Source: Pseudomonas oryzihabitans | GTDB lineage: Bacteria; Pseudomonadota; Gammaproteobacteria; Pseudomonadales; Pseudomonadaceae | Direction: 5' to 3' | Assembly (NCBI RefSeq): GCF_001518815.1 | Contig: NZ_CP013987.1 | Location: forward strand, 3,308,501-3,372,500 | DNA: 64,000 nt | Part shown: positions 1 to 13,327 of the stretch, piece after piece | Position numbering within the stretch: position 1 is the stretch's first letter | How the letters are laid out: every line of letters begins with the position of its first letter | Position numbers and translations under genes: made by a program | Notes under the pieces: model-generated | Seen by the model: only the letters and a program-made list of their open reading frames with translations | Told to the model about the DNA's origin: nothing | Databases searched by the model: none

Positions 1-1564
1 TGCGGCAACGCCTTTCATGAGCGCCGAAGACATCCCCTAGCAAACTCAGGAACTCATCGTCATCCTGAAACTCCAGCCCTATATCCCGCCAGGCATTACC
101 AGGCGCCGAAGGATTGTATTCCCAGTGTTCTACCCGCTTTTCACTGGAGTACAACAAAATCGGTCGATCCAGCGCCATGAACTCAAACAGCAGCGAAGAG
201 CGATCGGCAACCAATATATCCGCTTCGGCAAAGCTATCAGCAATACTGGCTTCAGGATCGTCGATCAATTCGACCAGCGAATCGGACGCTGCCTGCATCC
301 GCCATACGGCCATTAAATTGCGGAAGCGTTCCTTCTCGACGACAAAGGCGTGCTCGTATTGAACGATCGCAGGATGAGGCTTGATAATAATTCTTGCAGT
401 CGGAAAGACTTGGCGTATGAGTGGCACAAGTCTTTCACCGAAATAGACTGCAGCACTGAGTTCCGGATTATACGTAGGGGCGAATAGAATAGTCGGACAG
501 TCGCGGACTGGTACTCTTTTCGGCAACCGGAAGACCTGATCTACCCAGGCATTGCCGGTTAGCAAAAATCCTTGGCGTGGGCGGACTCCAGATAGCAGCG
601 TATCCTCTATGTCCCAAGCGCTGCCGCACATGTAATCAGCTAGATTGTATTGCGGTTCGGCGTAGCCATACCGCGTGACAGAACCATGCCGCATGGCGAC
701 AAGCGTTGCTCCATGGGCATCGCAGTAGTCGCGCCAAAATTCCACAGACCAACCATCGGCCACCGCGATGACGTCGGGCCGCCAAGCCATCACCTCAGCG
801 ATATCCAGGCTCAGCAGGCTCTTCTCAAAACATGCTGACAGTGGTCTTAGCGAGCGAAAGTGGAACGGCATGCTGCCATAACAGGCCACCCTCAGGCTGG
901 AATGAGGCTTTTCGACGGGCTTGGGCAGCAGTTGCCTGAACACATAAAGAATGCTCGTCTGCTGATAATTGTCCATTGTCAGCAGGGGGTGACGAGATGA
1001 AAGCTCGAACCCTAAAGAGCGAACCAGCGCCAGGTAGGAAGACTCGGTCCGGTACACAGCCTCGTAGCTATCGGTAACCAGCGTGACTGAGGAGTCAGCG
1101 CCTACCAGCACCGAATCCTTGAGTATCAGGATGCCATCGTCGCTCAGTACTTCAGCAGCCCGTAGCAATACTCGAGCTGCACTCAGATCATCGGTGATGG
1201 TCGTGAGTACCCCCATCAGGCTGACCGCCTCGAATCTTTCCGACCTCCCGAACTCGAAGATGTCTACCGCTTCAAACTGAACGTTCGCCGCTCCGATCTT
1301 GGCTGCCTGATCGCGGGCCTGCCGAATGAGTTCCGACCCAAGGTCAATACCCTTTACCTTTGCTACCTTCTGCGCATAGAGCAAGGAAAACTGGCCATCT
1401 GCACAGCCTATGTCGAGTAGCCGGTCGCTTGGTTCAAGCAACGGTAAAACGGCGCTCGAAATAACTTCTCTTTGCCGCTCGTAGAGCAGCTCCGGCCCTA
1501 TCTGACCCCTTTGGGTCGCTGACCGAAATTGCCGCGCCTTAATCCCCTGGGACGCTTTTTTCAT
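1..1564 (-). CDS. Methyltransferase / CDP-glycerol glycerophosphotransferase-like fusion (partial)
   Basis: The reading frame is open from the ATG at 1564 to the window edge, with 521 codons visible and the C terminus missing. Residues about 49-57 read LLDIGCADG, the SAM-binding motif I of class I methyltransferases, so the first ~200 residues look like a methyltransferase. From about residue 350 the protein resembles the CDP-glycerol:poly(glycerophosphate) glycerophosphotransferase (TagB/TagF) family: FAPTYNP, then KPHP near residue 393, then ADRSSLLFEFMALDRPI near 445-465. In that family the conserved histidine and the serine-rich region take part in nucleotide-diphosphate and glycerol-phosphate chemistry. 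It starts one base after the stop of the upstream NTP-transferase gene, so it is the last visible gene of that operon. The exact donor (CDP-glycerol or another CDP-alcohol) is inference. The sequence is AT-richer than the flagellar genes beside it. Confidence 0.8.
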   Translation of the reverse strand, partial: MKKASQGIKARQFRSATQRGQIGPELLYERQREVISSAVLPLLEPSDRLLDIGCADGQFSLLYAQKVAKVKGIDLGSELIRQARDQAAKIGAANVQFEAVDIFEFGRSERFEAVSLMGVLTTITDDLSAARVLLRAAEVLSDDGILILKDSVLVGADSSVTLVTDSYEAVYRTESSYLALVRSLGFELSSRHPLLTMDNYQQTSILYVFRQLLPKPVEKPHSSLRVACYGSMPFHFRSLRPLSACFEKSLLSLDIAEVMAWRPDVIAVADGWSVEFWRDYCDAHGATLVAMRHGSVTRYGYAEPQYNLADYMCGSAWDIEDTLLSGVRPRQGFLLTGNAWVDQVFRLPKRVPVRDCPTILFAPTYNPELSAAVYFGERLVPLIRQVFPTARIIIKPHPAIVQYEHAFVVEKERFRNLMAVWRMQAASDSLVELIDDPEASIADSFAEADILVADRSSLLFEFMALDRPILLYSSEKRVEHWEYNPSAPGNAWRDIGLEFQDDDEFLSLLGDVFGAHERRCR

Positions 1565-1565
1565 A

Positions 1566-2219
1566 CTATTTCCATCCACCGGTCATGACCCTTCTAGCCA
1601 TGTCTAGATCTGCGACGGTATCTATGTCGAAAGCGTCCAATTCATAGGCAGGTAGCGGCAGATAAGGCTCAAGCGCCTGATACACGTAAATCGGCTGATC
1701 AACGACAGTGCTGGGCTCGAGTATCGCTATGCCCGTCCACTCCCATTCGTGATACGGTTCTCGCGTGAAAGCCTGAACAAGCGTATTTTCCTGATTCAGG
1801 ACTACTCTGACACCATCGCTGGTTGTATAACTAGAAACGCCCACCAGTTGATTATATTGTTCGGCAGCCTTTATAAAATCCCTAAAGCTATCCGGTCTCA
1901 CCACAGTATCGGCATCCACTACCAAGAATCTTTCGTGCAGATGCCGAGCAACTCTGAATATGCTTTGCAGCGTATTGGTTCGCGCAAAGTCGGGATTACG
2001 AACGATAATTATATTTGGCCGGAGCGCCAAGGCATGAGCAATAACGTCTTCTTCCTGAAAGCCTACGACAAGCCATACGAAAGGAACATCGACCAAGCGC
2101 TCGAGATGATAGTCGAGCAGGGTGCGCCCTGCCACCTCTACCAAACACTTCGGCCTATTCAAACCTAAGCGAGACCCTATACCAGCAGCACTGATCACAA
2201 CATGTTCAATAGGCGGCAT
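1566..2219 (-). CDS. NTP transferase (nucleotidyltransferase) family protein
   Basis: 217 residues. The N terminus reads VVISAAGIGSRLGLNRPKCL, a variant of the GxGxRLxxxxPKxL signature that binds NTP in sugar-1-phosphate and phosphocholine nucleotidyltransferases (LicC/GCD1-like). VVDADTVV near residue 100 fits the metal-binding acidic position. At 217 aa it is a short single-domain enzyme without the left-handed helix of hexose-1-P transferases, which favours a small phospho-alcohol or similar substrate (inference). The start overlaps the end of the HAD gene by 25 bases, and the stop lies one base before the fusion gene, so translation is probably coupled. No clear Shine-Dalgarno sequence is visible, consistent with coupling. 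A role in making a CDP- or UDP-activated group for flagellin glycan is inferred from position. Confidence 0.8.
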   Translation of the reverse strand: MPPIEHVVISAAGIGSRLGLNRPKCLVEVAGRTLLDYHLERLVDVPFVWLVVGFQEEDVIAHALALRPNIIIVRNPDFARTNTLQSIFRVARHLHERFLVVDADTVVRPDSFRDFIKAAEQYNQLVGVSSYTTSDGVRVVLNQENTLVQAFTREPYHEWEWTGIAILEPSTVVDQPIYVYQALEPYLPLPAYELDAFDIDTVADLDMARRVMTGGWK

Positions 2220-2800
2220 AGGGCAGTCCGGTCATAAATTACAAAATCACTTAGCTTTACCAGAAGTGCGGTCGGCGGATGAGTTCCACCATAGGCGATT
2301 CGCCAATCCGCCGCCTCGAACATGGGCACATCGTTCATGCCATCGCCTACTGCAATGATGCGGTCGTACTGCCTACGCAGCTCTGCCACTACATCACCCT
2401 TATGCAGAATATGATCTATCCCGACCAGCTTTCCATTGTCATCGAGCTTAGCTCTCGAGGCAAAATTGCGGATACCCAGTCGATCAAGAACCGGTTTGAC
2501 CCAGATATCCAAATTTCCCGTTATCACGTAACAATCTTCAGGACGACTCGCGATAAATGAAAGTATTTCAGCGTCGAAGTCAACACTATGCTCCAGCGTC
2601 TGGTGTATCCATTCGATATTAGCGTCCTTCAGCAAGCGGACCCGCAACTTGAACGATTTGTCAAAAGGCAACACGCCGTCGATTGTGGCCTGCGTTAGCA
2701 GCGAGATCTCATCCTCGAGCCCCACGGTTGCAGCGATGAGAGGGAGAAGCTCCTGGCGGGTCAAGGTGCCGTCGAGATCGAAGCAGTAAGCTGTCCTCAC
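2195..2800 (-). CDS. HAD-superfamily phosphatase (SerB-like)
   Basis: 201 residues. HAD motif I is FDLDGTLT at residues 8-15, with both catalytic aspartates present. VITGNLD near residue 93 acts as motif II, and GDGMNDVPMFEAAD near residues 152-165 is motif III/IV. This arrangement is typical of the phosphoserine phosphatase-like branch of the HAD family, which usually hydrolyses small phospho-alcohols. The gene overlaps the upstream methyltransferase by four bases (ATGA) and the downstream NTP transferase by 25 bases, so it belongs to the same operon. The substrate cannot be read from the sequence. A phosphorylated precursor of the group activated by the next enzyme is plausible. Confidence 0.8.
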   Translation of the reverse strand: MRTAYCFDLDGTLTRQELLPLIAATVGLEDEISLLTQATIDGVLPFDKSFKLRVRLLKDANIEWIHQTLEHSVDFDAEILSFIASRPEDCYVITGNLDIWVKPVLDRLGIRNFASRAKLDDNGKLVGIDHILHKGDVVAELRRQYDRIIAVGDGMNDVPMFEAADWRIAYGGTHPPTALLVKLSDFVIYDRTALCRLLNML

Positions 2801-3567
2801 TGCTGTACATCCTTCATGGAAAGAATCAGGTAGTACTGACGGGTTTCGACTCGTTTCTCCAGACTATCCTCAAACAGGAACCCTTCCTGGTCGACTGCCA
2901 GAGTGCCCGCTGGAAAAGCCTGAGACAACAGCACCTTGAGCTCGTCCAACGTTCGATAAATGGCGGAATAGCGGTCTTGCAGCTCTGAAGAAAAAAAGGC
3001 ATCCAAGGTCAGACGCTTTTCCAGAGCGATTGGCTCGCGAAGATAGAAGCGAGTAGCAGATGAGCAGAGCGACCCGAGATCGGTCAACATTTTTAGACAA
3101 TCGGCGTCGTTCAAATAGATCAGCAGACCCGACACGATAAGCAGATCATAAGGCGGTGTTAGTTCAAGCCGAGTGCTGTCGATGGCGGTCGCCGACATGG
3201 TCTGGAACTTGAGTCGTCGGTATCCGCGTTCCAGGGCTCCCTCATGCGCCTTGGCAATGAGAGAAGACGAGAAGTCGATACCGAGATAGTCGATCTCCGG
3301 ATGGCGGTCTGCCAGGTACCATCCCCACCGGCCTATACCACAACCAATATCCAGCACCGACCTGGGTGCGGGGCTGCAGAGCGCCATACCGATGGCAGCT
3401 TTTTCAGCTTCGTCACGGTAAGCAACCAGTCCGGGATCATTGTCTTGATACATGGTTGCGCTTAGAGCGTTCTGATAATGCTGACGCCCGCGCCGCTCAA
3501 AAAAGGCCTGAGTGGCAGCATAGTCAATTTCAACGATTTCGCCCTGCACCCGCTGCCCATCTCTCAA
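2797..3567 (-). CDS. Class I SAM-dependent methyltransferase
   Basis: 256 residues. VLDIGCGIGRWGWYLAD near residue 90 is SAM motif I, followed by YLGIDFS (motif II acidic position) and YDLLIVSGLLIYL (motif IV region). The start is a TTG at 3567, with GAGG eight bases upstream. An in-frame GTG at 3549 is an alternative. It is the first gene after flgL (74-base gap) and overlaps the HAD gene by four bases. The substrate is unknown. It could methylate a sugar, an amino-alcohol or an amino group of the flagellin glycan. Its place directly downstream of flgL, where Pseudomonas flagellin-glycosylation loci usually sit, is the basis for that idea. Confidence 0.75.
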   Translation of the reverse strand: MRDGQRVQGEIVEIDYAATQAFFERRGRQHYQNALSATMYQDNDPGLVAYRDEAEKAAIGMALCSPAPRSVLDIGCGIGRWGWYLADRHPEIDYLGIDFSSSLIAKAHEGALERGYRRLKFQTMSATAIDSTRLELTPPYDLLIVSGLLIYLNDADCLKMLTDLGSLCSSATRFYLREPIALEKRLTLDAFFSSELQDRYSAIYRTLDELKVLLSQAFPAGTLAVDQEGFLFEDSLEKRVETRQYYLILSMKDVQQ

Positions 3568-3641: not shown

Positions 3642-4940
3642 TCACAGGTAATTGAACAAACTCAACTGCGATACCTTCACAAAGCTCTGCTGCGTCGCCT
3701 GCAGAACCGTATTCTGCAAGGCATAGCGGGACAAAGCCTCAGCATAGTCCAGATCCTGAAGATCCGACTGCACCGACTTATTGACCAGGCTGACGTCGGC
3801 GATGAAGTCGCTGGTGGAGTCGATGACGTTGAGGCGTGCGCCAACTTTGCCGCGGATGCCATCGACCTGGGTATAGGCCGTATCGAGGTTGCTCAGGGCT
3901 ACTGCAGCGCTGTCGCGCATCTTGTACACGCCCTCGGTGCTGCCATCGCCGCTCTCCAGGGCCTTGCGCAAGTCGGACACCACATTGAGCAGGCTGCGCT
4001 TCTCGTTGTCGGTGTCGCGGGTGATCTTGAACTCGTCACCGGCTGCGGGCACACCATCAATCTGCACCTTGACGCCTCCAAAGCGGATGACGTCGCTGGT
4101 AGAGGGATTGCCATCCACGCTGTCCGCCTTGAGCTGGCCAGCTGGCGGATTGGTCGGATCGTAGGCCGCCCATTCGGCCGCCGTAGGTGCCTTGGACAGG
4201 TCATAGATGACGTACTTCTTGTCATCGAGGAAATGGATACCGATACCGTCGGCAGCGACCGGCGGCGTGCTGGCGGGAAAAGTGTCGTCGTAGGCCTTCT
4301 TGTCTTCTACAAGGCCCAGCGAGATCCGCCCGGTACCCGTGTTGCCAGCTGTTGGCGCAGTCTTGACGCGATTGGCGTTGAAGTTGTTCTCGAAGGCGTC
4401 CTTGCCGCTGTCGCTGATGGGCACGAAGGTGGAGCTGGCGATCTGCACGCTGCGCTGGCCTTCGTCGCCGTTGTAGCTGTAGGTGCCGTCGGCATTGCGC
4501 ACATAAGGCTGGGTGTCGCCCATGGAGCCGGAGAACAGGTATTTGCCGCTGGCGTCCTTGCTGTTCATTAGGTTCATCAGCTCGTCTTCGCGCTGACCGA
4601 CCTCCTTGGCCAGGGACGCACGGTCGGTCGGATCCAAAGCGCCGTTGCCCGCCTGGACGGCGATCTCGCGGATGCGCGTCAGCACCGTTTCCACCGAGGT
4701 GAGCATGGCTTCCCCGGTGTTGAGGCTGTTCTTGGCGGCGGTCATGCCGGTGTTGTACTGACCGTTGAGCGCCTCTTCCTGGCTCAGTTGCAACAGCTTG
4801 ATCGACGCTACCGGATCGTCCGCCGGAGTGAGGATCTTCTTGCCGGTGCTGATCTGCTCCTGGGAGCGACTGACATCGCCATAGTTGTTCTGCAGGCCGC
4901 TGATGCCGTTGTTGAACGCCTGGACGGTAGAGATGCGCAT
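3642..4940 (-). CDS. flgL: Flagellar hook-associated protein 3 FlgL (HAP3)
   Basis: 432 residues. FlgL joins the hook to the filament, outside the cell. The N terminus (MRISTVQAFNNGISGLQ, then QISTGKKILTPADDP) and the C-terminal helix (RYALQNTVLQATQQSFVKVSQLSLFNYL in outline) are the flagellin-like coiled coils typical of the family. The middle is the variable surface-exposed domain. AAGGA precedes the ATG at 4940 at a suitable distance, and the gene follows flgK by 11 bases. It is the last flagellar gene of the flgF-flgL transcription unit. No convincing terminator was seen between it and the methyltransferase downstream, so readthrough into the glycan block is possible. Confidence 0.97.
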   Translation of the reverse strand: MRISTVQAFNNGISGLQNNYGDVSRSQEQISTGKKILTPADDPVASIKLLQLSQEEALNGQYNTGMTAAKNSLNTGEAMLTSVETVLTRIREIAVQAGNGALDPTDRASLAKEVGQREDELMNLMNSKDASGKYLFSGSMGDTQPYVRNADGTYSYNGDEGQRSVQIASSTFVPISDSGKDAFENNFNANRVKTAPTAGNTGTGRISLGLVEDKKAYDDTFPASTPPVAADGIGIHFLDDKKYVIYDLSKAPTAAEWAAYDPTNPPAGQLKADSVDGNPSTSDVIRFGGVKVQIDGVPAAGDEFKITRDTDNEKRSLLNVVSDLRKALESGDGSTEGVYKMRDSAAVALSNLDTAYTQVDGIRGKVGARLNVIDSTSDFIADVSLVNKSVQSDLQDLDYAEALSRYALQNTVLQATQQSFVKVSQLSLFNYL

Positions 4941-4951
4941 GGGCGGGTTCC

Positions 4952-6991
4952 TTATCTGAAGGCGCCGATCAGGGTGTCGAACAGCGACTGGGCGATCTTG
5001 ATGACCTGCGCCGAGGCGCCGTAGTACTGCTGGAACTGGACGAGCTTGGCCGCCTCTTCATCCAGGTTCACCGCGGACAGGGAATCGCGATTGTCTTCCG
5101 ACTGCTTGAGCACGGTCTCGCTGGCGGCCGAATCCACCCGCACCTGGGCAGTCAGGGTACCGACCCGCTCCACCAGGCCGCCGTAGGCATTGTTGTAGGT
5201 GGTACCGGTGGTGCCATAGCCGCCCATGGTGGTCTTGGTCTGCAAGGCCACCAGGTTCAGGGCATTGCGGTTGTCCGAGACAGCGCCACTGTTGGCGCCC
5301 AGGGTGAAGCTGTCACCATCCTGCGGGACGCCGCTGACGTTGAAGTCGTAGCTGTAGCTGTTGTTCGTGTTCGGGTCGGTGTATTGCAGCCGTAGCGTAT
5401 TGGTCTGGCCCGAGGTCAGGCCGGTAGTGGACGGCGAGACGTAACTCAGGCTCGCACCGGTAGGCAGGGTCCCGGTCAGGTTGCCGGCGGCAGCACTGAA
5501 ATTCAGCTTGATGCCGCCATTACCAAACAGCCGTCCCAGGTCAGCGGTACTGACCGGCGAAGGCGCATTCTTGAGATCGGGCTGGGTAATGGCCCCCGTA
5601 CCGCGGTTGTTGGTGGTGCTGGCGGCCTTGGCGGTTCCGGCGAAGCCCAGCTGGCTGGATTGGCTCAGATCCACGCTCATCTGCGCCGCGCCGCGGCGAG
5701 TGGGTTGGAGGCTGAAGACGTCGCCCGCCTGGGCCTTGTTCAACTCGGACGCGGTGAACTGCACCTTGAAGCCCTGATCGGTGCCCTTGGCATCGGCGAA
5801 GGTCAGGGTGACCGGATCGGTCCCGCTCCGGGTTACGGAAATGCTGGTGCTGTCGCTGATGCGCAGCGCCTTGAAATTGGTGCCGTCGAAATCCAGCCGG
5901 TAGTCGCTTGGATTGAGCTTGGCGGTATCGGTGATGTTGAGTGTTGCGGTAGCCGAGCCGAAGTTGGTCGACCGCCCCATGACCCGCAGGCCGGTGCTCT
6001 GTCCACCGTTGACGTCGCTGAACAGCGCCGAACCGGCATTGCCGGCCAGGTCCAGACCCTGCCCCAGCTGCTTGTTCAGGGTATCGGTCAGAGTCAGCGC
6101 CAATTGACCCAGGCTGTTGAAGGCATGGTCCAGCGCCGTGTCCCGGTAGGACAGCAGGCCCCCCATCTCACCGCCCCTGACCTGCGAAGTGATGATCTGC
6201 GAGGTACTGCCCGCCGTCAGGGTGACCTGATAGCGCGACGGATCGTCGTTGCCCGGCTGTGCGGCCAGGGTCGAGACGTTGCTGCCGACCACCAGTGGCT
6301 GACCGGTCCCCACGAAGAGATTCAGCGAGCCATCGTCCTGACTGATCACCTGCAGACCGACCATGCCGGACAGCTGCTTGATGGCCTGGTCGCGAGAATC
6401 GATCAGATCGTTGGGCGCCGCGCCCGCCGCCTTGGAGCGGGCAATGGCATCGTTCAGGCTGCCGACGCTCTTTGCCAGGGAATTGATCTGGCCGGTGAGT
6501 GCCGACAGCTGATCGTTGATCTGGCTATTCTGCTTGTCGATCTGGTCGTACAGGGTATTGAAGGATTTGCTCAGGCCCTGCGCCTGGGCGAGCACGGCCT
6601 CCCGCGCCGGGACCGAGGACGGATCCTGGGAGGCGGTCTGCAGGGTGGCGAAGAACTTCTGCATGGCCGGCGTGATACCGGTCGTGTTGTCGGACAGCAG
6701 GCCGTCGAGCTGGGAGATCTGGCTCTTGAAAGCCTGCAGCTCACTGTTCTGGCTGTTGGCCGTGCGCACCTGACTGGTGAGGAAATCGCTGGCGAGACGA
6801 CGTACGTCCACCGTCTGGGAGCCGGAGCCCACATAACCCGAGCCGTTGAACTGGGCGATATTGGTCTGCTGAATGGCCTCCTGCCGCGAATAGCCAGGCG
6901 TGTTGACGTTGGCGATGTTGTGGCCGGTAGTGGTCAGAGCATTCTGCGTGGATCTCAGGCCCGACAGACCAATGGAAAGTAGATCAGCCAT
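4952..6991 (-). CDS. flgK: Flagellar hook-associated protein 1 FlgK (HAP1)
   Basis: 679 residues, normal for Pseudomonas FlgK. The N terminus (MADLLSIGLSGLRSTQNALTTTGHNIANVNTPGYSRQ in outline) carries the rod/hook-family ANVNTPGYSRQ motif. The C terminus (VNLDEEAAKLVQFQQYYGASAQVIKIAQSLFDTL in outline) is the matching amphipathic helix that packs in the D0 domain. The long middle region forms the outer domains at the hook-filament junction. The ATG at 6991 has GAGG upstream. It lies nine bases from flgJ and 11 from flgL in the same operon. Confidence 0.97.
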   Translation of the reverse strand: MADLLSIGLSGLRSTQNALTTTGHNIANVNTPGYSRQEAIQQTNIAQFNGSGYVGSGSQTVDVRRLASDFLTSQVRTANSQNSELQAFKSQISQLDGLLSDNTTGITPAMQKFFATLQTASQDPSSVPAREAVLAQAQGLSKSFNTLYDQIDKQNSQINDQLSALTGQINSLAKSVGSLNDAIARSKAAGAAPNDLIDSRDQAIKQLSGMVGLQVISQDDGSLNLFVGTGQPLVVGSNVSTLAAQPGNDDPSRYQVTLTAGSTSQIITSQVRGGEMGGLLSYRDTALDHAFNSLGQLALTLTDTLNKQLGQGLDLAGNAGSALFSDVNGGQSTGLRVMGRSTNFGSATATLNITDTAKLNPSDYRLDFDGTNFKALRISDSTSISVTRSGTDPVTLTFADAKGTDQGFKVQFTASELNKAQAGDVFSLQPTRRGAAQMSVDLSQSSQLGFAGTAKAASTTNNRGTGAITQPDLKNAPSPVSTADLGRLFGNGGIKLNFSAAAGNLTGTLPTGASLSYVSPSTTGLTSGQTNTLRLQYTDPNTNNSYSYDFNVSGVPQDGDSFTLGANSGAVSDNRNALNLVALQTKTTMGGYGTTGTTYNNAYGGLVERVGTLTAQVRVDSAASETVLKQSEDNRDSLSAVNLDEEAAKLVQFQQYYGASAQVIKIAQSLFDTLIGAFR

Positions 6992-6999
6992 GGCTCACC

Positions 7000-8217
7000 T
7001 CAACCGCGGGACGGACTGGTGCCCAGGGAGGCAACCGTCTGATAGGTGTTCATGTTGCGGGCGATCTGGATCACCTTGCGTGCGTATTGCGGATCGGTGG
7101 CATAACCGGCCTGCTGCAACCCCTGCATGAAGCGCTCGGAATTGCCGTTGGTGGACAGCGCCTTGTCGTAGCGATCATTGCTCTGCAGGAAGTTCACGTA
7201 GTCGTGGAAGCTGTCGGCGAACGAATCGTAGGTGCGAAACTTCGCGGTCTCGGTCACCGCCTTGCCGTTGACGAACTCCTGGGTCACCGCGGGGGCGCTG
7301 CCGCCATCCCAGCCGTGGGACTTGATGCCGAACAGGTTGTTGCTGTTGCTGCCATCGGCCTGCTTGACCATGTGCTTGCCCCAGCCGGTTTCCAGCGCCG
7401 CCTGGGCGACCAGGTACTTGGGATCCACGCCCAGGCGCTTTGCCGCGGCCTCGGCCATGGGCATCATGGTGTCGACGAATTCCTGGCGGGTACGGAAACG
7501 GGTCTTGCCGGTAGCGGCGGTGCTGTCCACGCTGGCGACGGCCTCAGTTGCGGCCGCCGGCTTACTGCCGGGTTGCGTGGCCTGCTGGCGCCAGGCGCTC
7601 TGGGCGGCCGCGACTTCCTGGAAGCTCTGCTTGAGGGCAGCGCCCTGCTCAGCCGCGCCGGAAATGTTGGCGGCGGTACGCTCGGCCAGTCGCCCGGGCA
7701 AGGCAAGCCGGCGCGAATTGAGCGCGCTGGAATCGTCACGCCCGGACGCTACCGCATTGGTCGGCTTGAGGCCGTGGCTCGCCACGTCGTTGAGCTTGGC
7801 GTTGCGGCCAGCGGCCAGCTGGCCGTCGGTGGGCGCAGCCTGGCCAACCTGAGCGAAGGGATTGGGGCGGGTCGACGGCTGGGCGGTCTTGCTCAGCTGA
7901 CGCTCCAGGACATTGGCCAGGCCGATACCGCCGCCATCCCGGGACAGGGAGACGGCCAACTGCTGGTCGTACATGTCCTGGTACTGCTTGGTGGTCTCGC
8001 TGGAAAAGGGGCTGTCCTTGTCCGCCAGCGCCTGGTTGGCGCTGCGCATGGACTTGAGCATCTGGTTCAGGAACAGCGACTCGAATTCGCCCGCGACTTT
8101 CTTGACGTTTTCCGCGCTGTCGCGATCCTTCCCCTTCATCTGGGCCAACCGATTCAGGTCGGTGAAGGCCCCCGAATCCTTGACGTTGCCGTAGTTGCCA
8201 CCCAGACGAGATTCCAT
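7000..8217 (-). CDS. flgJ: Peptidoglycan hydrolase / rod-cap protein FlgJ
   Basis: 405 residues in two domains. The N-terminal ~110 residues are the rod-capping part (FESLFLNQMLKSMRSANQ, then YQDMYDQQLAVSLS). A low-complexity Ala/Gln-rich linker follows. From about residue 245 to the end is a glucosaminidase-type hydrolase domain (FVDTMMPMAEAAAKRLGVDP, AALETGWGKH, FGIKSHGWDGG), whose glutamate in ALETGWG is the expected catalytic acid. FlgJ is exported to the periplasm and opens the peptidoglycan so the rod can pass. The ATG at 8217 is preceded by GGAGA. It is the fifth gene of the flgF operon. Confidence 0.96.
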   Translation of the reverse strand: MESRLGGNYGNVKDSGAFTDLNRLAQMKGKDRDSAENVKKVAGEFESLFLNQMLKSMRSANQALADKDSPFSSETTKQYQDMYDQQLAVSLSRDGGGIGLANVLERQLSKTAQPSTRPNPFAQVGQAAPTDGQLAAGRNAKLNDVASHGLKPTNAVASGRDDSSALNSRRLALPGRLAERTAANISGAAEQGAALKQSFQEVAAAQSAWRQQATQPGSKPAAATEAVASVDSTAATGKTRFRTRQEFVDTMMPMAEAAAKRLGVDPKYLVAQAALETGWGKHMVKQADGSNSNNLFGIKSHGWDGGSAPAVTQEFVNGKAVTETAKFRTYDSFADSFHDYVNFLQSNDRYDKALSTNGNSERFMQGLQQAGYATDPQYARKVIQIARNMNTYQTVASLGTSPSRG

Positions 8218-8229
8218 CGCCCGCTCTCC

Positions 8230-9330
8230 TTAAATTACGATCAGATCGGCCTGCAAGGCGCCGGCCTGTTTCAACGCTTCGAGAATGGCCACCAGGTCGC
8301 TGGGCGCCGCGCCCACCTGATTCACCGCTCTCACGATTTCGTCCAACGTGGTGCCCGGACCGAACTTGAACATCGGCTTGGCCTCTTGCTTGGCCTTGAC
8401 GGTCGACTGGGGCGTCACCACCGTCTGCCCACCCGACAAGGGATTGGGCTGGCTTACCTGCGGGTCCTCGCTGATGGTCACGGTCAAGCTGCCCTGGGTC
8501 ACCGCCGCTGGCGAGACCTTGACGTTCTGGCCGATGACGATGGTCCCGGTGCGGGAATTGACGATGACCTTGGCCACCGCCTGCCCCGGATCCACCTCCA
8601 TGTTCTCCAGGATCGAGATGTAGTCGACGCGCTGGCTGGGATCCACCGGCGCCGTGACGCGAATCGATCCGGCATCGACAGCTGATGCAACACCCGCGCC
8701 AAGTGTCTCGTTGATCTTGTCGACGATGCGTTTGGCGGTGGTGAAGTCGCTGCGATTCAGGTCCAGCGTGATGCTGTTGCCCTGGTCGAAGCCACTCGGC
8801 ACTGGTCGCTCGACAGTGGCCCCATTGGGAATGCGCCCGGACGACGGAACGTTGACGGTGATCTTCGAACCGTCGCGGCCTTCGGCGTCAAAACCCCCGA
8901 CCACCAGGTTGCCCTGGGCGATGGCGTAGATCTGGCCATCGATACCCTTGAGCGGCGAGAGCAGCAGGCTGCCGCCTCTCAGGCTCTTGGAGTTGCCGAT
9001 GGAAGACACCGTGATGTCGATGGTCTGGCCGGGCTTGGAAAAGGCCGGCAGATCGGCGTGGATGGATACCGCCGCGACGTTCTTCAGCTGCGCGGTGGTG
9101 CCCGGCGGCACCTTGATGCCGAACTGCGCCAGCATGTTGTTGAAGGTCTGCACGGTGAAGGGCGTCTGGGTGGTCTGGTCACCGGTACCGGGCAGCCCCA
9201 CTACCAGGCCGTAGCCGATCAGCTGGTTGGTCCGCACGCCCTGGATGCTGGCGATGTCCTTCAGGCGATCCGCCTGGGCCAGCGGCATGACCAGGGCCAG
9301 GGCGGCAGCGGCGATGAGGCTCTTGAACAT
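8230..9330 (-). CDS. flgI: Flagellar P-ring protein FlgI
   Basis: 366 residues with an N-terminal Sec signal peptide ([20 protein letters not shown]), which is cut before [13 protein letters not shown]. That mature start is the family signature. FlgI polymerises around the rod in the periplasm at the peptidoglycan layer. The C terminus ([32 protein letters not shown] in outline) is also typical. I place the start at 9330 because GAGGAT lies at the right distance and the signal peptide begins there. An ATG at 9339 is too close to that Shine-Dalgarno sequence. flgH lies immediately upstream. Confidence 0.96.
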
Positions 9331-9341
9331 GGCGCTCATCC

Positions 9342-10037
9342 TCAGAAGGGCATCAGGGGGCTGCCGAAGAGCTGGCTCAGCCAGCCCGGCTGACTGGCAT
9401 CGGCGAAGGCGCCGGTACCCGAATAGGTGATACGTGCATCGGCTACGCGGGTAGAGGACACGGTGTTGTCGGTGGCGATGTCGTCGGCGCGGACCATGCC
9501 CTGGATGCGCATGAGTTCGTTGCCGGTGTTGAGGGTCAACCACTTCTCGCCACGCACTACCAGGATGCCATTGGGCAGCACTTCGGCGATGGTCACGGTC
9601 AGCGAGCCGGACAGGCTGTTGCCCTGGGCCGCCGTGGACTTGCCGGTGTTGGAGCGGTTACCGGAGAAACCGGCGTCCAGACTCAAGTCGCCATCGGCCA
9701 GCGGATTGGGAATCTTCGGCTTGGCGCCGAACAGCGAAGTCAGCCCAAGGGTCGCCTTGGTGTTCTTCGCGATGTCGGAACTGGCGTTCTTGCTGGCCTG
9801 GGTCCGCTCCTGCAGGGTGATGGTGATGATGTCGCCGATGCGGAAAGCCTTGCGGTCGGTATAGAGATTCTGCTCGAACCCCGACTGGAAGATGGCGCCG
9901 TTGTTTTGCGCCGCTGGCACCGGGGTACGCGGTAGCACCGGGGCGTAGTAGGGATCGTCCGGCTTGGCTGCCGGGGCTACGCATCCTGCGAGTACGAGCG
10001 CTCCCAGGAGCGGGGCGACGGCGAATAGAGGTTTCAT
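9342..10037 (-). CDS. flgH: Flagellar L-ring lipoprotein FlgH
   Basis: 231 residues. The signal peptide ends in a lipobox (LVLAGC, cysteine near residue 18), so the mature protein is a lipoprotein forming the outer-membrane L-ring. The region [28 protein letters not shown] (in outline) and the C-terminal [22 protein letters not shown] are conserved in FlgH. The start at 10037 is chosen because GAGGA precedes it by eight bases. A GTG at 10052 overlaps that site and would add five residues in front of the signal peptide. flgG is seven bases further upstream than the longer start. Confidence 0.96.
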
Positions 10038-10058
10038 GGAGCGCGTCCTCACAGGGGA

Positions 10059-10844
10059 TTAGAGCTGCTGGGTAACGAAGCCGAGCATCTGATCGGCGGT
10101 GGAAATGACCTTGGAGTTCATCTCGTAGGCGCGCTGGGTGGTGATCATGTTCACCAGCTCCTCGACCGTGCTCACGTTGGAGTTTTCCAGGGTGCTCTGC
10201 AGCACGGTGCCAAGGCCGTTCAAGCCCGGGGTACCGACCTGAGGCGCGCCGCTGGACGCGGTCTCGCTGAACAGGTTCTGGCCCACGGCCTGGAGGCCGC
10301 CCGGGTTGACGAACTGGGCGATCTGCAGGTTGCCGATGACCTGGGGCGCGGCCTGGCCGGCGGTGGTGACCGACACGGTGCCGTCTTCGCCGACGGTGAA
10401 GGTCTTGGTATCGGCAGGCAGCACGATGGCAGGCTGCAGTGCGAAGCCATTGGCGGTGACCAGCTGGCCATCGGCATTGAGGTGAAAGGTGCCGTCACGG
10501 GTGTAGTTGATGGTCCCGTCGGGCATGGTCACCTGGAAGAAGCCATCGCCGTTGACCGCCATGTCCAGCGGCTGGTCGGTGGTCTGCAGCGAACCCTCGG
10601 TGAAGTTCTTTTGGGTGCCGACGATGCGCACACCGGTACCCAGCTGCAGACCGGAGGGAAGCTGGTTGTCCTGGGTGGACTGGGCACCGGGCTGACGGCG
10701 GATCTGGTACAGCAGGTCCTGGAATTCGGCGCGGTCGCGCTTGAAGCCCGTGGTGGACACGTTGGCCAGGTTGTTGGAGATGGTGGTGAGGTTCATGTCC
10801 TGGGCGGACAGACCGGTCTTGGCGACCCACAGTGACGACATCAT
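10059..10844 (-). CDS. flgG: Distal rod protein FlgG
   Basis: 261 residues, the usual FlgG length. It forms the distal rod. The N terminus carries DMNLTTISNNLANVSTTGFK, the rod-protein motif, followed by FQDLLYQIRRQPGAQ, the FlgG-specific stretch that stiffens the rod compared with the hook. The C-terminal helix (NVSTVEELVNMITTQRAYEMNSKVI in outline) is typical. A GAGGA ribosome-binding site precedes the ATG. It sits 46 bases downstream of flgF and 21 bases upstream of flgH. Confidence 0.97.
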   Translation of the reverse strand: MMSSLWVAKTGLSAQDMNLTTISNNLANVSTTGFKRDRAEFQDLLYQIRRQPGAQSTQDNQLPSGLQLGTGVRIVGTQKNFTEGSLQTTDQPLDMAVNGDGFFQVTMPDGTINYTRDGTFHLNADGQLVTANGFALQPAIVLPADTKTFTVGEDGTVSVTTAGQAAPQVIGNLQIAQFVNPGGLQAVGQNLFSETASSGAPQVGTPGLNGLGTVLQSTLENSNVSTVEELVNMITTQRAYEMNSKVISTADQMLGFVTQQL

Positions 10845-10890
10845 GCTGGTATTCCTCGAAGTGCCGGTTTTACGTCGGCGCTAGCCGTTA

Positions 10891-11634
10891 TCAGGAGAAT
10901 TGCAAAACCTTTGCCATCGCCGCGTCGTTGTCTTCCGCGCTGCGCATCATCTTTACCTGCAGCTCGAACTGGCGGGACAGCGACAGGATCGAGGTCATCT
11001 CCTCCGCCGCATTGACGTTGCTTGACTCGACGAAGCCGGAGACCAGGGAGACGTTGGCATCCATGGGCGGCGCCGCCTGCCCCTGCTTCATGTGCAGCAG
11101 GCCATCGAGCCCCTTTTCCATCTGCTTGGTATCGGGATTGACCAACTTGATGCGGTCGACCTGAGCCAGGGCGTTGGCTGCCTGGCCCGAACCGCGCACG
11201 GTGATGCTGCCGTCCTGACCGATTTCCACCTTGGAGGCAGGCGGCACGGCGATGGGACCGCCATTGCCGAGCACCGGCAAACCGCTGCCGGTCCGCAGCA
11301 TGCCAAGGGGGTCGATCTGCAGGCTGGAGGTGCGCACGTAGGCCTCCTTGCCGGAGGGATCCTGGACCGCGACGAAGCCCGGCCCCTGGATGGCCACGTC
11401 CAGGTCACGGCCCGTCTCCTGCAGCGCGCCAGGGGTGAAGTCCGTCGCCGGCCGCTCACTCATGGAGTAGACGCGCGACGGCATGGTCTCGCCGAACACC
11501 TGCATCGAGCGCGCCTGTTCGAGATCCTTGCGGAATCCCGAAGTCGAGACGTTGGCCAGGTTGTTGGCGTGGGCGCGCTGGGCCATCTCGTTCTGGCTGG
11601 CGCCGGTCATGGCGACGTACAGCAGCTTGTCCAT
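10891..11634 (-). CDS. flgF: Proximal rod protein FlgF
   Basis: 247 residues. The N terminus (MDKLLYVAMTGASQNEMAQRAHANNLANVSTSGF in outline) and C terminus (NVNAAEEMTSILSLSRQFELQVKMM) match FlgF. It is the first gene of its transcription unit: a GGAGGA ribosome-binding site is present, and a sigma-54 promoter lies about 55 bases upstream, after the flgE terminator. It is placed in the rod between the MS-ring side and FlgG. Confidence 0.97.
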   Translation of the reverse strand: MDKLLYVAMTGASQNEMAQRAHANNLANVSTSGFRKDLEQARSMQVFGETMPSRVYSMSERPATDFTPGALQETGRDLDVAIQGPGFVAVQDPSGKEAYVRTSSLQIDPLGMLRTGSGLPVLGNGGPIAVPPASKVEIGQDGSITVRGSGQAANALAQVDRIKLVNPDTKQMEKGLDGLLHMKQGQAAPPMDANVSLVSGFVESSNVNAAEEMTSILSLSRQFELQVKMMRSAEDNDAAMAKVLQFS

Positions 11635-11687
11635 CTGATCCTCCGACGGCGGCAGATTGCCGCCAAGCTTGCGTTCGGAGGTTCTTT

Positions 11688-11703
11688 AGCAAGCCCCGTT
11701 CCA
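11688..11703 (-). promoter_or_regulatory. Sigma-54 promoter of flgFGHIJKL
   Basis: On the minus strand this reads TGGAACGGGGCTTGCT, matching the RpoN consensus TGGMACG-N4-TTGCW with GG and GC ten bases apart. It lies between the flgE terminator and the flgF start, as expected for FleQ/FleR-dependent class III flagellar promoters in Pseudomonas. Confidence 0.88.
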
Positions 11704-11742
11704 GAAACTTAAAACCCTTTAAAATCAGTAGCCTGAAAATAG

Positions 11743-11762
11743 AAAAACCTCCCGAGGGAGGC
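11743..11762 (-). terminator. Intrinsic terminator after flgE
   Basis: On the minus strand the hairpin CCTCCCTCGGGAGG is followed directly by TTTTT. It lies about 40 bases after the flgE stop and ahead of the flgF promoter, separating the flgBCDE and flgFGHIJKL units. Confidence 0.8.
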
Positions 11763-11803
11763 TTTTCCTGACGCCGAAGCGGCAAGCCGTCAGAGAAACG
11801 ACA

Positions 11804-13327
11804 TCAACGCAGGTTGATGATGGTCTGGGTAATGGCGTTCTCGGTCTCGATGGTCTTGGCGTTGGCCTGGTAGTTGCGCTGCGCCACGATCATGTCGACC
11901 AGCTCGGTGGAGATGTCCACGTTGGACGCTTCCAGGGCACCGGACTGCAGCGAACCGAGGGTCCCGGCTCGGGGCGTTCCCACTACCGGCTGACCAGACT
12001 CCGCGGACTCGGTCCAGGAGGTCTTGCCCATGGGCGTCAAACCCTGGACGTTGGCGAAGTTGGCCAGGATCACCTGTCCCTGCACCTTGGACTGACCATT
12101 GGTGTAGCGAGCGAAGATCTGGCCGGTATCGTCGATTTCCAGGCCGGATAGCTGCCCAGTGGTGTAACCGTCCTGATTGACGCTGTTCACCGCGAAGGCA
12201 GTGGAGAATTGCGTCGAGCCCCGCGGATCGAAGGTGAAACCGCCAGTATTGCCCAGGGCACCGTTCCAGCTGTAGTTGGCCGGGTTGCCGCCATCGGAGA
12301 TCGCCGGGATCCAGCCACTGCCGCTCGAGCCGCTAGGATCGGCGGCGAAGGTGATGATGTTGGTCTTCGGATCGACCGAGACTCCCGACGAAGACGAGGT
12401 CACGCTGCTCAGCTTGCCAGCGGCATCGAAGGTCACGCCAAAGCTCTGCGGCTGGGTACCGTAGGCGGCCACGGCCGCAGCTACCGACGCCGGTGTCGCG
12501 CCAGCCGCCGCGGCAGCGTTGCTGGCGATGTTCTTCACCTGGGGCGTTGCCCCGGACATGTTGTTGACCGCATTGGCGACACTGTTGGCAGTGGCACCGG
12601 CAACCCCGGCTGCGGTGTTGGCGGTCTTGGTGGCGATACCGGGATCCAACGGGTTGCGTCCGTCGATCAGCACCTGCATGGACCACTGGTTGGTCGCCGG
12701 CGCCGGCGCCTTGACGAAGTATTGCGACATGACGTGCGAGTTGCCCTGGCTGTCATAGATGTTCAGCGAGGTCGAGGAGTTGTAGGTCTTCGGATCCGAG
12801 GGATCGAAAGGCGTCAGCGTCGGGGGCGTACTGGTCGAGTTCAGGTTGAACTGCTGAGCGATCTGGGTAGTGGACTTGGGTGCCTGGCTGGCAGTCTCGA
12901 CACGCAGGTCGCTGCGCACGCCGGGCTGCAGCAGCCCCTGCGCATTGGTGGTGTAGCCCTGCAGCTTGTAGCCATTGTTATCGACGATGAAACCGTTCTT
13001 GTCGGTACCGAAGTAACCGGCACGGGTGTACTGGACGGCGCCGTTGTTGCTGGTCATGAAGAAGCCGTTGCCATTGATGCCCATGTCCAGGGCATTCTGG
13101 GTGGAGTCGATGGTGCCCTGGTTGAACAGTTGCCCAACGTTGCCCAGCAGCACACCGCTACCTTGAGCATTCTTGCCAGTGCCCAGTACGGAGGCCGCAT
13201 ACAGATCCTGGAACTCCGCCCGTGACTGCTTGAAGCCGACGGTGCTGGCGTTGGCGATGTTGTTGCCGGTGATGTTGAGGTCACTGGACGCGGCCTTGAT
13301 GCCGCTCAAACCGATATTGAAAGACAT
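11804..13327 (-). CDS. flgE: Flagellar hook protein FlgE
   Basis: 507 residues, longer than the roughly 460 I recall for P. aeruginosa FlgE. The N terminus ([33 protein letters not shown] in outline) and C-terminal helix ([25 protein letters not shown]) are the hook D0/D1 pair. Residues about 232-289 are a low-complexity Ala/Asn/Val-rich stretch in the outer domain that probably accounts for the extra length. FlgE polymerises into the curved hook after export. It is the last gene of flgBCDE. A GAGGA site precedes the ATG, and an intrinsic terminator follows the stop. Confidence 0.97.

What the first reader, a model, noticed from the sequence alone, without database searches (positions are those of the whole stretch)
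1..3567. Four-gene block after flgL with a methyltransferase/glycerophosphotransferase fusion
Seen: two methyltransferase-type domains, a SerB-like HAD phosphatase, a small NTP transferase and a TagB/TagF-like domain fused to a methyltransferase, in one overlapping operon directly downstream of flgL. Known (from memory): Pseudomonas flagellin-glycosylation loci occupy this position, and the PAO1 b-type flagellin glycan is reported to carry phosphate. Inference: the block makes a methylated, phosphodiester-linked (teichoic-acid-like) decoration for flagellin glycan. The fusion itself is unusual for a Gram-negative.
Basis: partly seen in the sequence, partly recalled or inferred. Interest (0 to 1): 0.72.

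Follow-up and report, generated by a model that had tools for sequence, protein, structure and literature searches.

The report
Flagellin phospho-amino-acid sugar gene block
Next to its flagellin gene this Pseudomonas carries the same kind of gene block that makes Pseudomonas aeruginosa b-type flagellin sugar, where a methylated threonine hangs on the sugar through a phosphate, but with a second, apparently working methyl-adding enzyme part that has decayed in P. aeruginosa.

Summary
The block is real and mostly of a known kind. Past the left window edge the "fusion" continues to 1771 aa and ends beside fliC: flgL–MT–HAD–NTP transferase–1771 aa–fliC. This is the order of the P. aeruginosa b-type flagellin glycan cluster; the proteins match a P. 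aeruginosa b-type copy at 56, 69, 68 and 45%. In PAO1 that cluster makes deoxyhexose–phosphate–N,N-dimethylthreonine (PMC11833859).

What differs is the N-terminal methyltransferase of the big protein. Its SAM motif is intact in 8 of 10 orthologous rows, but decayed in P. aeruginosa and, separately, P. juntendi; its sequence is modestly related to the stand-alone methyltransferase. A second GT2 domain shows a similar split. I predict one more methyl (trimethylthreonine, or an O-methylated sugar) and perhaps one more sugar than PAO1. No chemistry was tested. Verdict: new variant of a known kind.

The parts
2797..3567 (-). Stand-alone SAM methyltransferase, 256 aa, PA1088-type; predicted N-methyltransferase of phospho- or CDP-threonine
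   Evidence: 56% to the P. aeruginosa b-type copy; profile's best solved relatives are phosphoethanolamine N-methyltransferases, 1.4e-18; DxGCGxGRW and Y-x-A-x-YR kept in 14 of 14 copies aligned (the more distant L070 and L094 copies were not in that alignment; they keep Y-x-A-x-YR but have other residues in the first motif)
2195..2800 (-). HAD-IB (SerB-like) enzyme, 201 aa, PA1089-type; predicted to make phosphothreonine, by phosphotransfer from phosphoserine in the published model
   Evidence: best solved relative phosphoserine phosphatase 7.9e-19, with the DxDxT nucleophile motif and the columns of its E20 and R56 kept (role of E20/R56 recalled); 69% to P. aeruginosa
1566..2219 (-). NTP (cytidylyl)transferase, 217 aa, PA1090-type; predicted to make CDP-(N-methyl)threonine
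   Evidence: PF12804; nearest solved: 6pd1 nucleotidyltransferase/aminotransferase 2.4e-6 and 1jyk CTP:phosphocholine cytidylyltransferase 2.9e-6; AAGIGSRLGLNRPKCL motif; 68% to P. aeruginosa
2..1579 (-). First 526 codons of the 1771-aa FgtA-type protein, cut by the left window edge; the rest is L003:11264-15001 (minus)
   Evidence: 45% over an alignment of 1723 columns to the P. aeruginosa b-type FgtA
914..1468 (-). Head methyltransferase domain of the 1771-aa protein (residues 38-222), SAM motif intact
2..904 (-). Phosphotransferase domain of the 1771-aa protein (residues 226-526 inside the window; ends near residue 556 outside it)
   Evidence: PF04464 1.2e-12 at 328-554; HG, KPHP and DRSS motifs; the most conserved domain among relatives
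3642..4940 (-). flgL, upstream flank of the block
   Evidence: TIGR02550 1.9e-104

Best explanation
This is the flagellin-glycan operon of a Pseudomonas oryzihabitans-like strain, orthologous to PA1088-PA1091. Proposed route: the HAD enzyme makes phosphothreonine; the NTP transferase activates it to CDP-threonine; the stand-alone methyltransferase N-methylates it; the TagF-like domain of the 1771-aa protein moves the methylated phosphothreonine onto a sugar that the same protein's glycosyltransferase domains place on FliC. The intact head methyltransferase, a relic in P. aeruginosa, adds one methyl that PAO1 lacks, most likely on the amino group. Shown here: gene order, orthology, domain content, intact motifs, relic state in one P. 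aeruginosa b-type copy. Known for PAO1: the glycan. Inferred: every enzyme step in this organism and the target of the head domain.
For: flgL and fliC flank the block. A P. aeruginosa b-type locus has the same order and identities of 56/69/68/45%; its fliC is annotated B-type flagellin and holds the exact 36-residue glycopeptide printed for PAO1. PAO1 glycan = deoxyhexose-phosphate-N,N-dimethylthreonine, and pa1088-pa1090 mutants show only the deoxyhexose. The HAD enzyme matches phosphoserine phosphatase, the NTP transferase matches phosphocholine cytidylyltransferase, and the stand-alone MT's profile matches phosphoethanolamine N-methyltransferases first. Head MT: SAM motif in 8 of 10 orthologous rows (9 species; own and YY7 are one); gone in P. 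aeruginosa and P. juntendi; two losses fit the phosphotransferase tree (fork of P. aeruginosa with P. turukhanskensis 92/92; the other group only 83/89); dN/dS 0.09-0.15 in three moderately diverged pairs with both heads intact. An HMM of 7 stand-alone MTs scores the own, P. straminea and P. reidholzensis heads 66-67 bits against at most 47.7 for 20 unrelated class I MTs. An rmlC-type gene (PF00908, 1.6e-71) is present for dTDP-rhamnose.
Against: No glycan of this organism has been measured, and no enzyme assay appears in the parts of the papers I read. The relation of head to stand-alone MT is modest: three of the six heads tested do not stand out from the controls (L070 47.9, P. juntendi 39.8, L071 37.5 bits), and with the C-terminal part alone five heads score -0.5 to 12.9 bits against at most 0.8 for controls (the sixth was not listed). 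G388, with an intact SAM motif, has lost the first Tyr of Y-x-A-x-YR. Three other cassettes carry a phosphotransferase without the head (L089, L090, L091), so the pathway does not seem to need it. The PAO1-like acceptor stretch in FliC is also in congeners without the cassette. dN/dS does not separate live from dead heads cleanly: 0.21 for Cy-639 versus the degenerate P. juntendi head, 0.33 for own versus YY7 on six changes.
Confidence: 0.8

Rival explanations
1. Same operon, but the head methyltransferase O-methylates the deoxyhexose (or a second sugar) instead of adding a third N-methyl.
For: It is fused to the protein that also builds the sugar; some Pseudomonas flagellin glycans carry methylated sugars (recalled). 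The second GT2 domain also keeps its acidic motif here.
Against: The own head is nearer to the stand-alone N-methyltransferase than 20 unrelated class I MTs are, and its model's nearest folds are alpha-amino N-methyltransferases, though fold similarity shows no function. Head state does not follow the GT2-2 motif: P. reidholzensis, Cy-639 and G325 keep the head but lack that motif, which speaks against a second sugar as target.
Confidence: 0.25
2. The two methyltransferases share the work (one primes with a single methyl, the other completes dimethylation), so the product is the same N,N-dimethylthreonine as in PAO1.
For: [quoted passage not shown] the two MT domains look related.
Against: P. 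aeruginosa reaches dimethylation although the head is decayed in the b-type copy I could read, so a second enzyme is not needed for two methyls.
Confidence: 0.25
3. A true teichoic-acid-like glycerol phosphate decoration.
For: PF04464 is named after CDP-glycerol glycerophosphotransferases.
Against: No match to PF01467, the TagD family by recall, in the four proteins; the orthologous system carries dimethylthreonine; a phosphoserine-phosphatase-like enzyme and N-methyltransferase-like enzymes fit an amino acid, not glycerol.
Confidence: 0.03

Closest known systems
Pseudomonas aeruginosa b-type flagellin glycan cluster PA1088-PA1091 (FgtA)
   Same: Gene order between flgL and fliC, all four proteins orthologous, phosphotransferase plus glycosyltransferase in one large protein.
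   Different: Head methyltransferase intact here, a relic there; second GT2 domain keeps an NNDT motif here, GAG there.
Clostridioides difficile Type A flagellin glycan cluster cd0240-cd0244
   Same: Same predicted activities: HAD, cytidylyltransferase, methyltransferase, TagF-like phosphotransferase, glycosyltransferase (passages).
   Different: Glycosyltransferase and phosphotransferase are separate genes there; core sugar GlcNAc and mostly a single N-methyl. Its sequences were not compared here.
TagF/TagB glycerophosphotransferases (PF04464)
   Same: Domain family; HG and KPHP motifs present (that these are the catalytic ones is recalled).
   Different: Partner enzymes and predicted donor (CDP-methylthreonine, not CDP-glycerol).
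Split relatives: G051 (L071), G015/G031 (L089/L090), G055 (L091)
   Same: MT-HAD-NTP genes at 31-78% identity followed by a PF04464 protein (L071, L089, L091 scanned; L090 not scanned).
   Different: Another phosphotransferase class (19-20% identity to ours for L071, L089, L091), with a head MT in L071, without in L089 and L091; L091 sits in a polysaccharide locus.

Membership tests
P. aeruginosa b-type flagellin glycan cluster | Gene order flgL - MT - HAD - NTP transferase - FgtA - fliC | tested here: met
P. aeruginosa b-type flagellin glycan cluster | Orthology of the four proteins | tested here: met
   56, 69, 68% and 45% over 1723 columns, against a b-type copy of another P. aeruginosa strain, not PAO1 itself
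P. aeruginosa b-type flagellin glycan cluster | Only one working methyltransferase, head of FgtA decayed (my observation, not a published criterion) | tested here: not met
   Head intact in the window protein, relic in P. aeruginosa
P. aeruginosa b-type flagellin glycan cluster | Flagellin carries deoxyhexose-phosphate-N,N-dimethylthreonine | not testable with these tools
   Needs mass spectrometry of this strain's flagellin
C. difficile Type A cluster | Glycosyltransferase and phosphotransferase on separate genes | tested here: not met
   Both in the 1771-aa protein
TagF-type CDP-glycerol glycerophosphotransferase | PF04464 domain | tested here: met
   1.2e-12
TagF-type CDP-glycerol glycerophosphotransferase | TagD-type (PF01467, recalled) partner making CDP-glycerol in the same block | tested here: not met
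   The NTP transferase matches PF12804/IspD models; PF01467 not listed at E up to 0.1 for any of the six proteins scanned. Genes elsewhere in the genome were not searched
TagF-type CDP-glycerol glycerophosphotransferase | CDP-glycerol as donor | not testable with these tools
   No assay
Alpha-N-terminal methyltransferases (NTMT1/NRMT2), for the head domain | Fold and active site of the family | tested here: inconclusive

The most novel reading that the evidence does not exclude
The head methyltransferase adds a third N-methyl, so this flagellin carries a phosphodiester-linked N,N,N-trimethylthreonine, a permanently charged betaine on the filament surface; the methylation grade (mostly 1 in C. 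difficile, 2 in P. aeruginosa, 3 here) would be set by how many methyltransferase domains are alive, and P. aeruginosa would have lost the third step.
Probability: 0.3. Interest if true: 0.6.

Novelty: new variant of a known kind. Interest (0 to 1): 0.4.

Why it matters
A 2014 study found the clustered genes within a flagellar locus only in P. aeruginosa PAO1-type strains besides C. difficile (PMC4441256 section 5). Here they appear beside flagellin or flgL in several more Pseudomonas species and, without flagellar hits, in one polysaccharide locus. Comparing species with live and dead head and GT2 domains gives ready-made pairs for assigning each step of a pathway whose intermediates are still only proposed, and predicts flagellin glycans with different charge.

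Tried and rejected
Acceptor site: the own FliC has a stretch resembling the PAO1 glycopeptide. In one search, of 7 FliC rows from congeners without the cassette one (L008) was cut off; 5 of the 6 readable ones have a similar stretch, L007 only in part. Of the 10 cassette rows only own, YY7 and P. turukhanskensis clearly have it; L035, L036, L037 and L075 have short FliCs without it. So I dropped it as evidence. L006 was given but yielded no FliC; L010 and L013 were not given.

Looking for P. aeruginosa among held genomes: 25 genomes of genus g8, which I guessed to be its genus, gave one weak hit; a plasmid record gave it instead. I had recalled FgtA as about 1200 aa; the record shows 1694 aa.

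Head versus stand-alone MT using the C-terminal part alone: weak. The single control with Y-x-A-x-YR (L050) proved to be the cassette MT of G055, so I took it out after the run and count 0 of 20. The controls were chosen by BLAST similarity to the own head.

Class sample: 2 of 369 genomes match the NTP transferase at 1e-15, the window's own and G417. Middle region 575-894: AlphaFold confidence too low (10-residue blocks of 22-55) to name a fold, and the structure search barely tested it. The phosphotransferase fold was likewise barely tested. Foldseek 'pdb' searches never ran.

Paper searches. In what I read, no paper mentions a methyltransferase relic in FgtA (the word 'domain' occurs 0 times in PMC11833859), but supplementary figures could not be read. 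The five best rows hold 'trimethylthreonine' 0 times; other spellings were not searched. The 2006 paper on b-type flagellin (PMC1482937) is not held.
Full report

Organism. The large protein is 99% identical to that of Pseudomonas oryzihabitans YY7, so the window is from that species or a very near one.

Identity of the system. A P. aeruginosa record (NZ_CP131792.1, an 847-kb plasmid of strain 2014S05-249) carries flgL - MT 253 - HAD 200 - NTP 220 - 1694 aa - fliC 'B-type flagellin'. The proteins match ours at 56, 69, 68 and 45% (the last over 1723 columns), and its fliC contains exactly the PAO1 glycopeptide printed in PMC11833859. I take this record as the PA1088-PA1091 type; PAO1 itself was not among the sequences I could read. 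PMC11833859 (parts 1-3 of 6 read, plus passages) shows that PAO1 flagellin carries deoxyhexose-phosphate-N,N-dimethylthreonine, that pa1088-pa1090 mutants show only the deoxyhexose and that the pa1091 mutant has bare flagellin; it adds that an earlier pa1089 mutant gave a mixture. It proposes CDP-N,N-dimethylthreonine as donor. PMC10714395 (passages) gives the C. difficile version of the model; PMC8861647 (passages) reports a small dimethyl fraction there.

Support from single enzymes. The HAD protein aligns with phosphoserine phosphatase (7.9e-19), keeping the nucleophile motif and the columns of its E20 and R56 (their substrate role is recalled). The NTP transferase's nearest solved relatives are a nucleotidyltransferase/aminotransferase fusion (6pd1; by recall PntC, acting on 2-aminoethylphosphonate) and CTP:phosphocholine cytidylyltransferase. 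The stand-alone methyltransferase family, as a profile of 9 sequences, hits phosphoethanolamine or phosphomethylethanolamine N-methyltransferases in its first four rows (1.4e-18 to 1.5e-12). All three point to small phospho-amino compounds. dTDP-rhamnose synthesis is likely: one rmlC-type hit at 1.6e-71.

What is different. In 10 orthologous large proteins (own; YY7; P. reidholzensis; Cy-639, a record titled Pantoea; P. juntendi; P. straminea; P. turukhanskensis; G388; G325; P. aeruginosa), the SAM motif of the head is intact in 8 and gone in P. juntendi and P. aeruginosa. The P. aeruginosa head has no Pfam methyltransferase match, but an HMM of the 8 intact heads still recognises residues 64-173 of it (domain E 3.5e-9 for a set size of 1000), so I read it as a relic rather than a different domain. 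The motif Y-x-A-x-YR is kept by 7 of the 8 intact heads (G388 has D for the first Y). The stand-alone methyltransferase keeps it in 10 of 10 of these loci, and keeps DxGCGxGRW in the 14 copies aligned; the distant L070 and L094 copies, not in that alignment, keep Y-x-A-x-YR but differ in the first motif. On the phosphotransferase tree P. aeruginosa pairs with P. turukhanskensis, whose head is intact (92/92), and P. juntendi falls in a group with intact-head species (83/89, drawn open), so two losses fit best. dN/dS of the head is 0.09 (P. straminea/G388), 0.09 (P. reidholzensis/Cy-639) and 0.15 (P. reidholzensis/G325). It is 0.19 for own/P. turukhanskensis and 0.21 for Cy-639/P. juntendi (degenerate head), both with dS above 2, and 0.33 for own/YY7 on six changes. 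These values show constraint on intact heads but do not by themselves separate live from dead ones.

A second difference. The second GT-A domain keeps an NNDT motif in own, YY7, P. straminea, P. turukhanskensis and G388, and lacks it in P. aeruginosa, P. reidholzensis, Cy-639, P. juntendi and G325. So this organism may add one more sugar than PAO1. Head state and this motif do not always go together, so they are probably separate steps.

Spread. In a sample of 398 family genomes the NTP transferase query gives 13 matches at 1e-10 or better, ten of them strong (1.8e-38 or better). In nine of those ten, flgL- or fliC-like genes lie in a fetched stretch; the tenth, G055, lies in a locus with a nucleotide-sugar dehydrogenase, an acyltransferase and glycosyltransferases. 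The head-plus-phosphotransferase stretch is found nearly full length in 6 of 398. In the window's own genus, 2 of 13 genomes have the whole protein, 10 have only the glycosyltransferase part (40-51% identity), and 1 has none. L071, L089 and L090 keep the three small genes at 54-78% identity; the phosphotransferases of L071 and L089 are of another class, 19-20% identical to ours, with a head methyltransferase in L071 and without one in L089; the L090 protein, of the same length as L089's, was not scanned or aligned. The donor-making genes are thus conserved while the transfer module is exchanged.

Verdict. It is the b-type/Type A kind of flagellin modification, not a teichoic-acid analogue, in a variant with an extra, apparently live methyltransferase domain. 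All chemistry in this organism is untested.

Noticed in passing
L091 (G055:C3:220000-236000), 8538-12094: The MT-HAD-NTP-PF04464 cassette inside a surface-polysaccharide locus with nucleotide-sugar dehydrogenase, acyltransferase and glycosyltransferases, no hit to the flgL or fliC queries: the same chemistry may decorate another glycan.
   Followed up: partly
L070 (G358:C13:70000-88000), 3729-10293: Between flgL and a large glycosyltransferase: two NTP-transferase-like ORFs, a DUF711 protein, a methyltransferase, an Asp/Glu racemase-family protein and a methyltransferase-phosphotransferase fusion (PF04464 just under its cut-off), with no hit to the HAD query: possibly another amino acid as cargo.
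   Followed up: partly
L094 (G417:C592:28000-44000), 4667-9099: HAD and NTP transferase genes with an Asp/Glu racemase-family gene, a methyltransferase and a PF04464 protein in a distant gammaproteobacterium; no convincing flgL or fliC match.
   Followed up: partly
L095 (NZ_CP131792.1:401509-420264): An 847-kb P. aeruginosa record typed as a conjugative plasmid carries flagellar genes flgE to fliD with the b-type glycosylation genes; either a plasmid with chromosomal DNA or a split chromosome.
   Followed up: no
L035 1468-5040 and 5076-7823; also L036, L037, L075: Species with a 2007-2060 aa version of the large protein also carry one or two further FgtA-like glycosyltransferase genes upstream of the cassette.
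   Followed up: no
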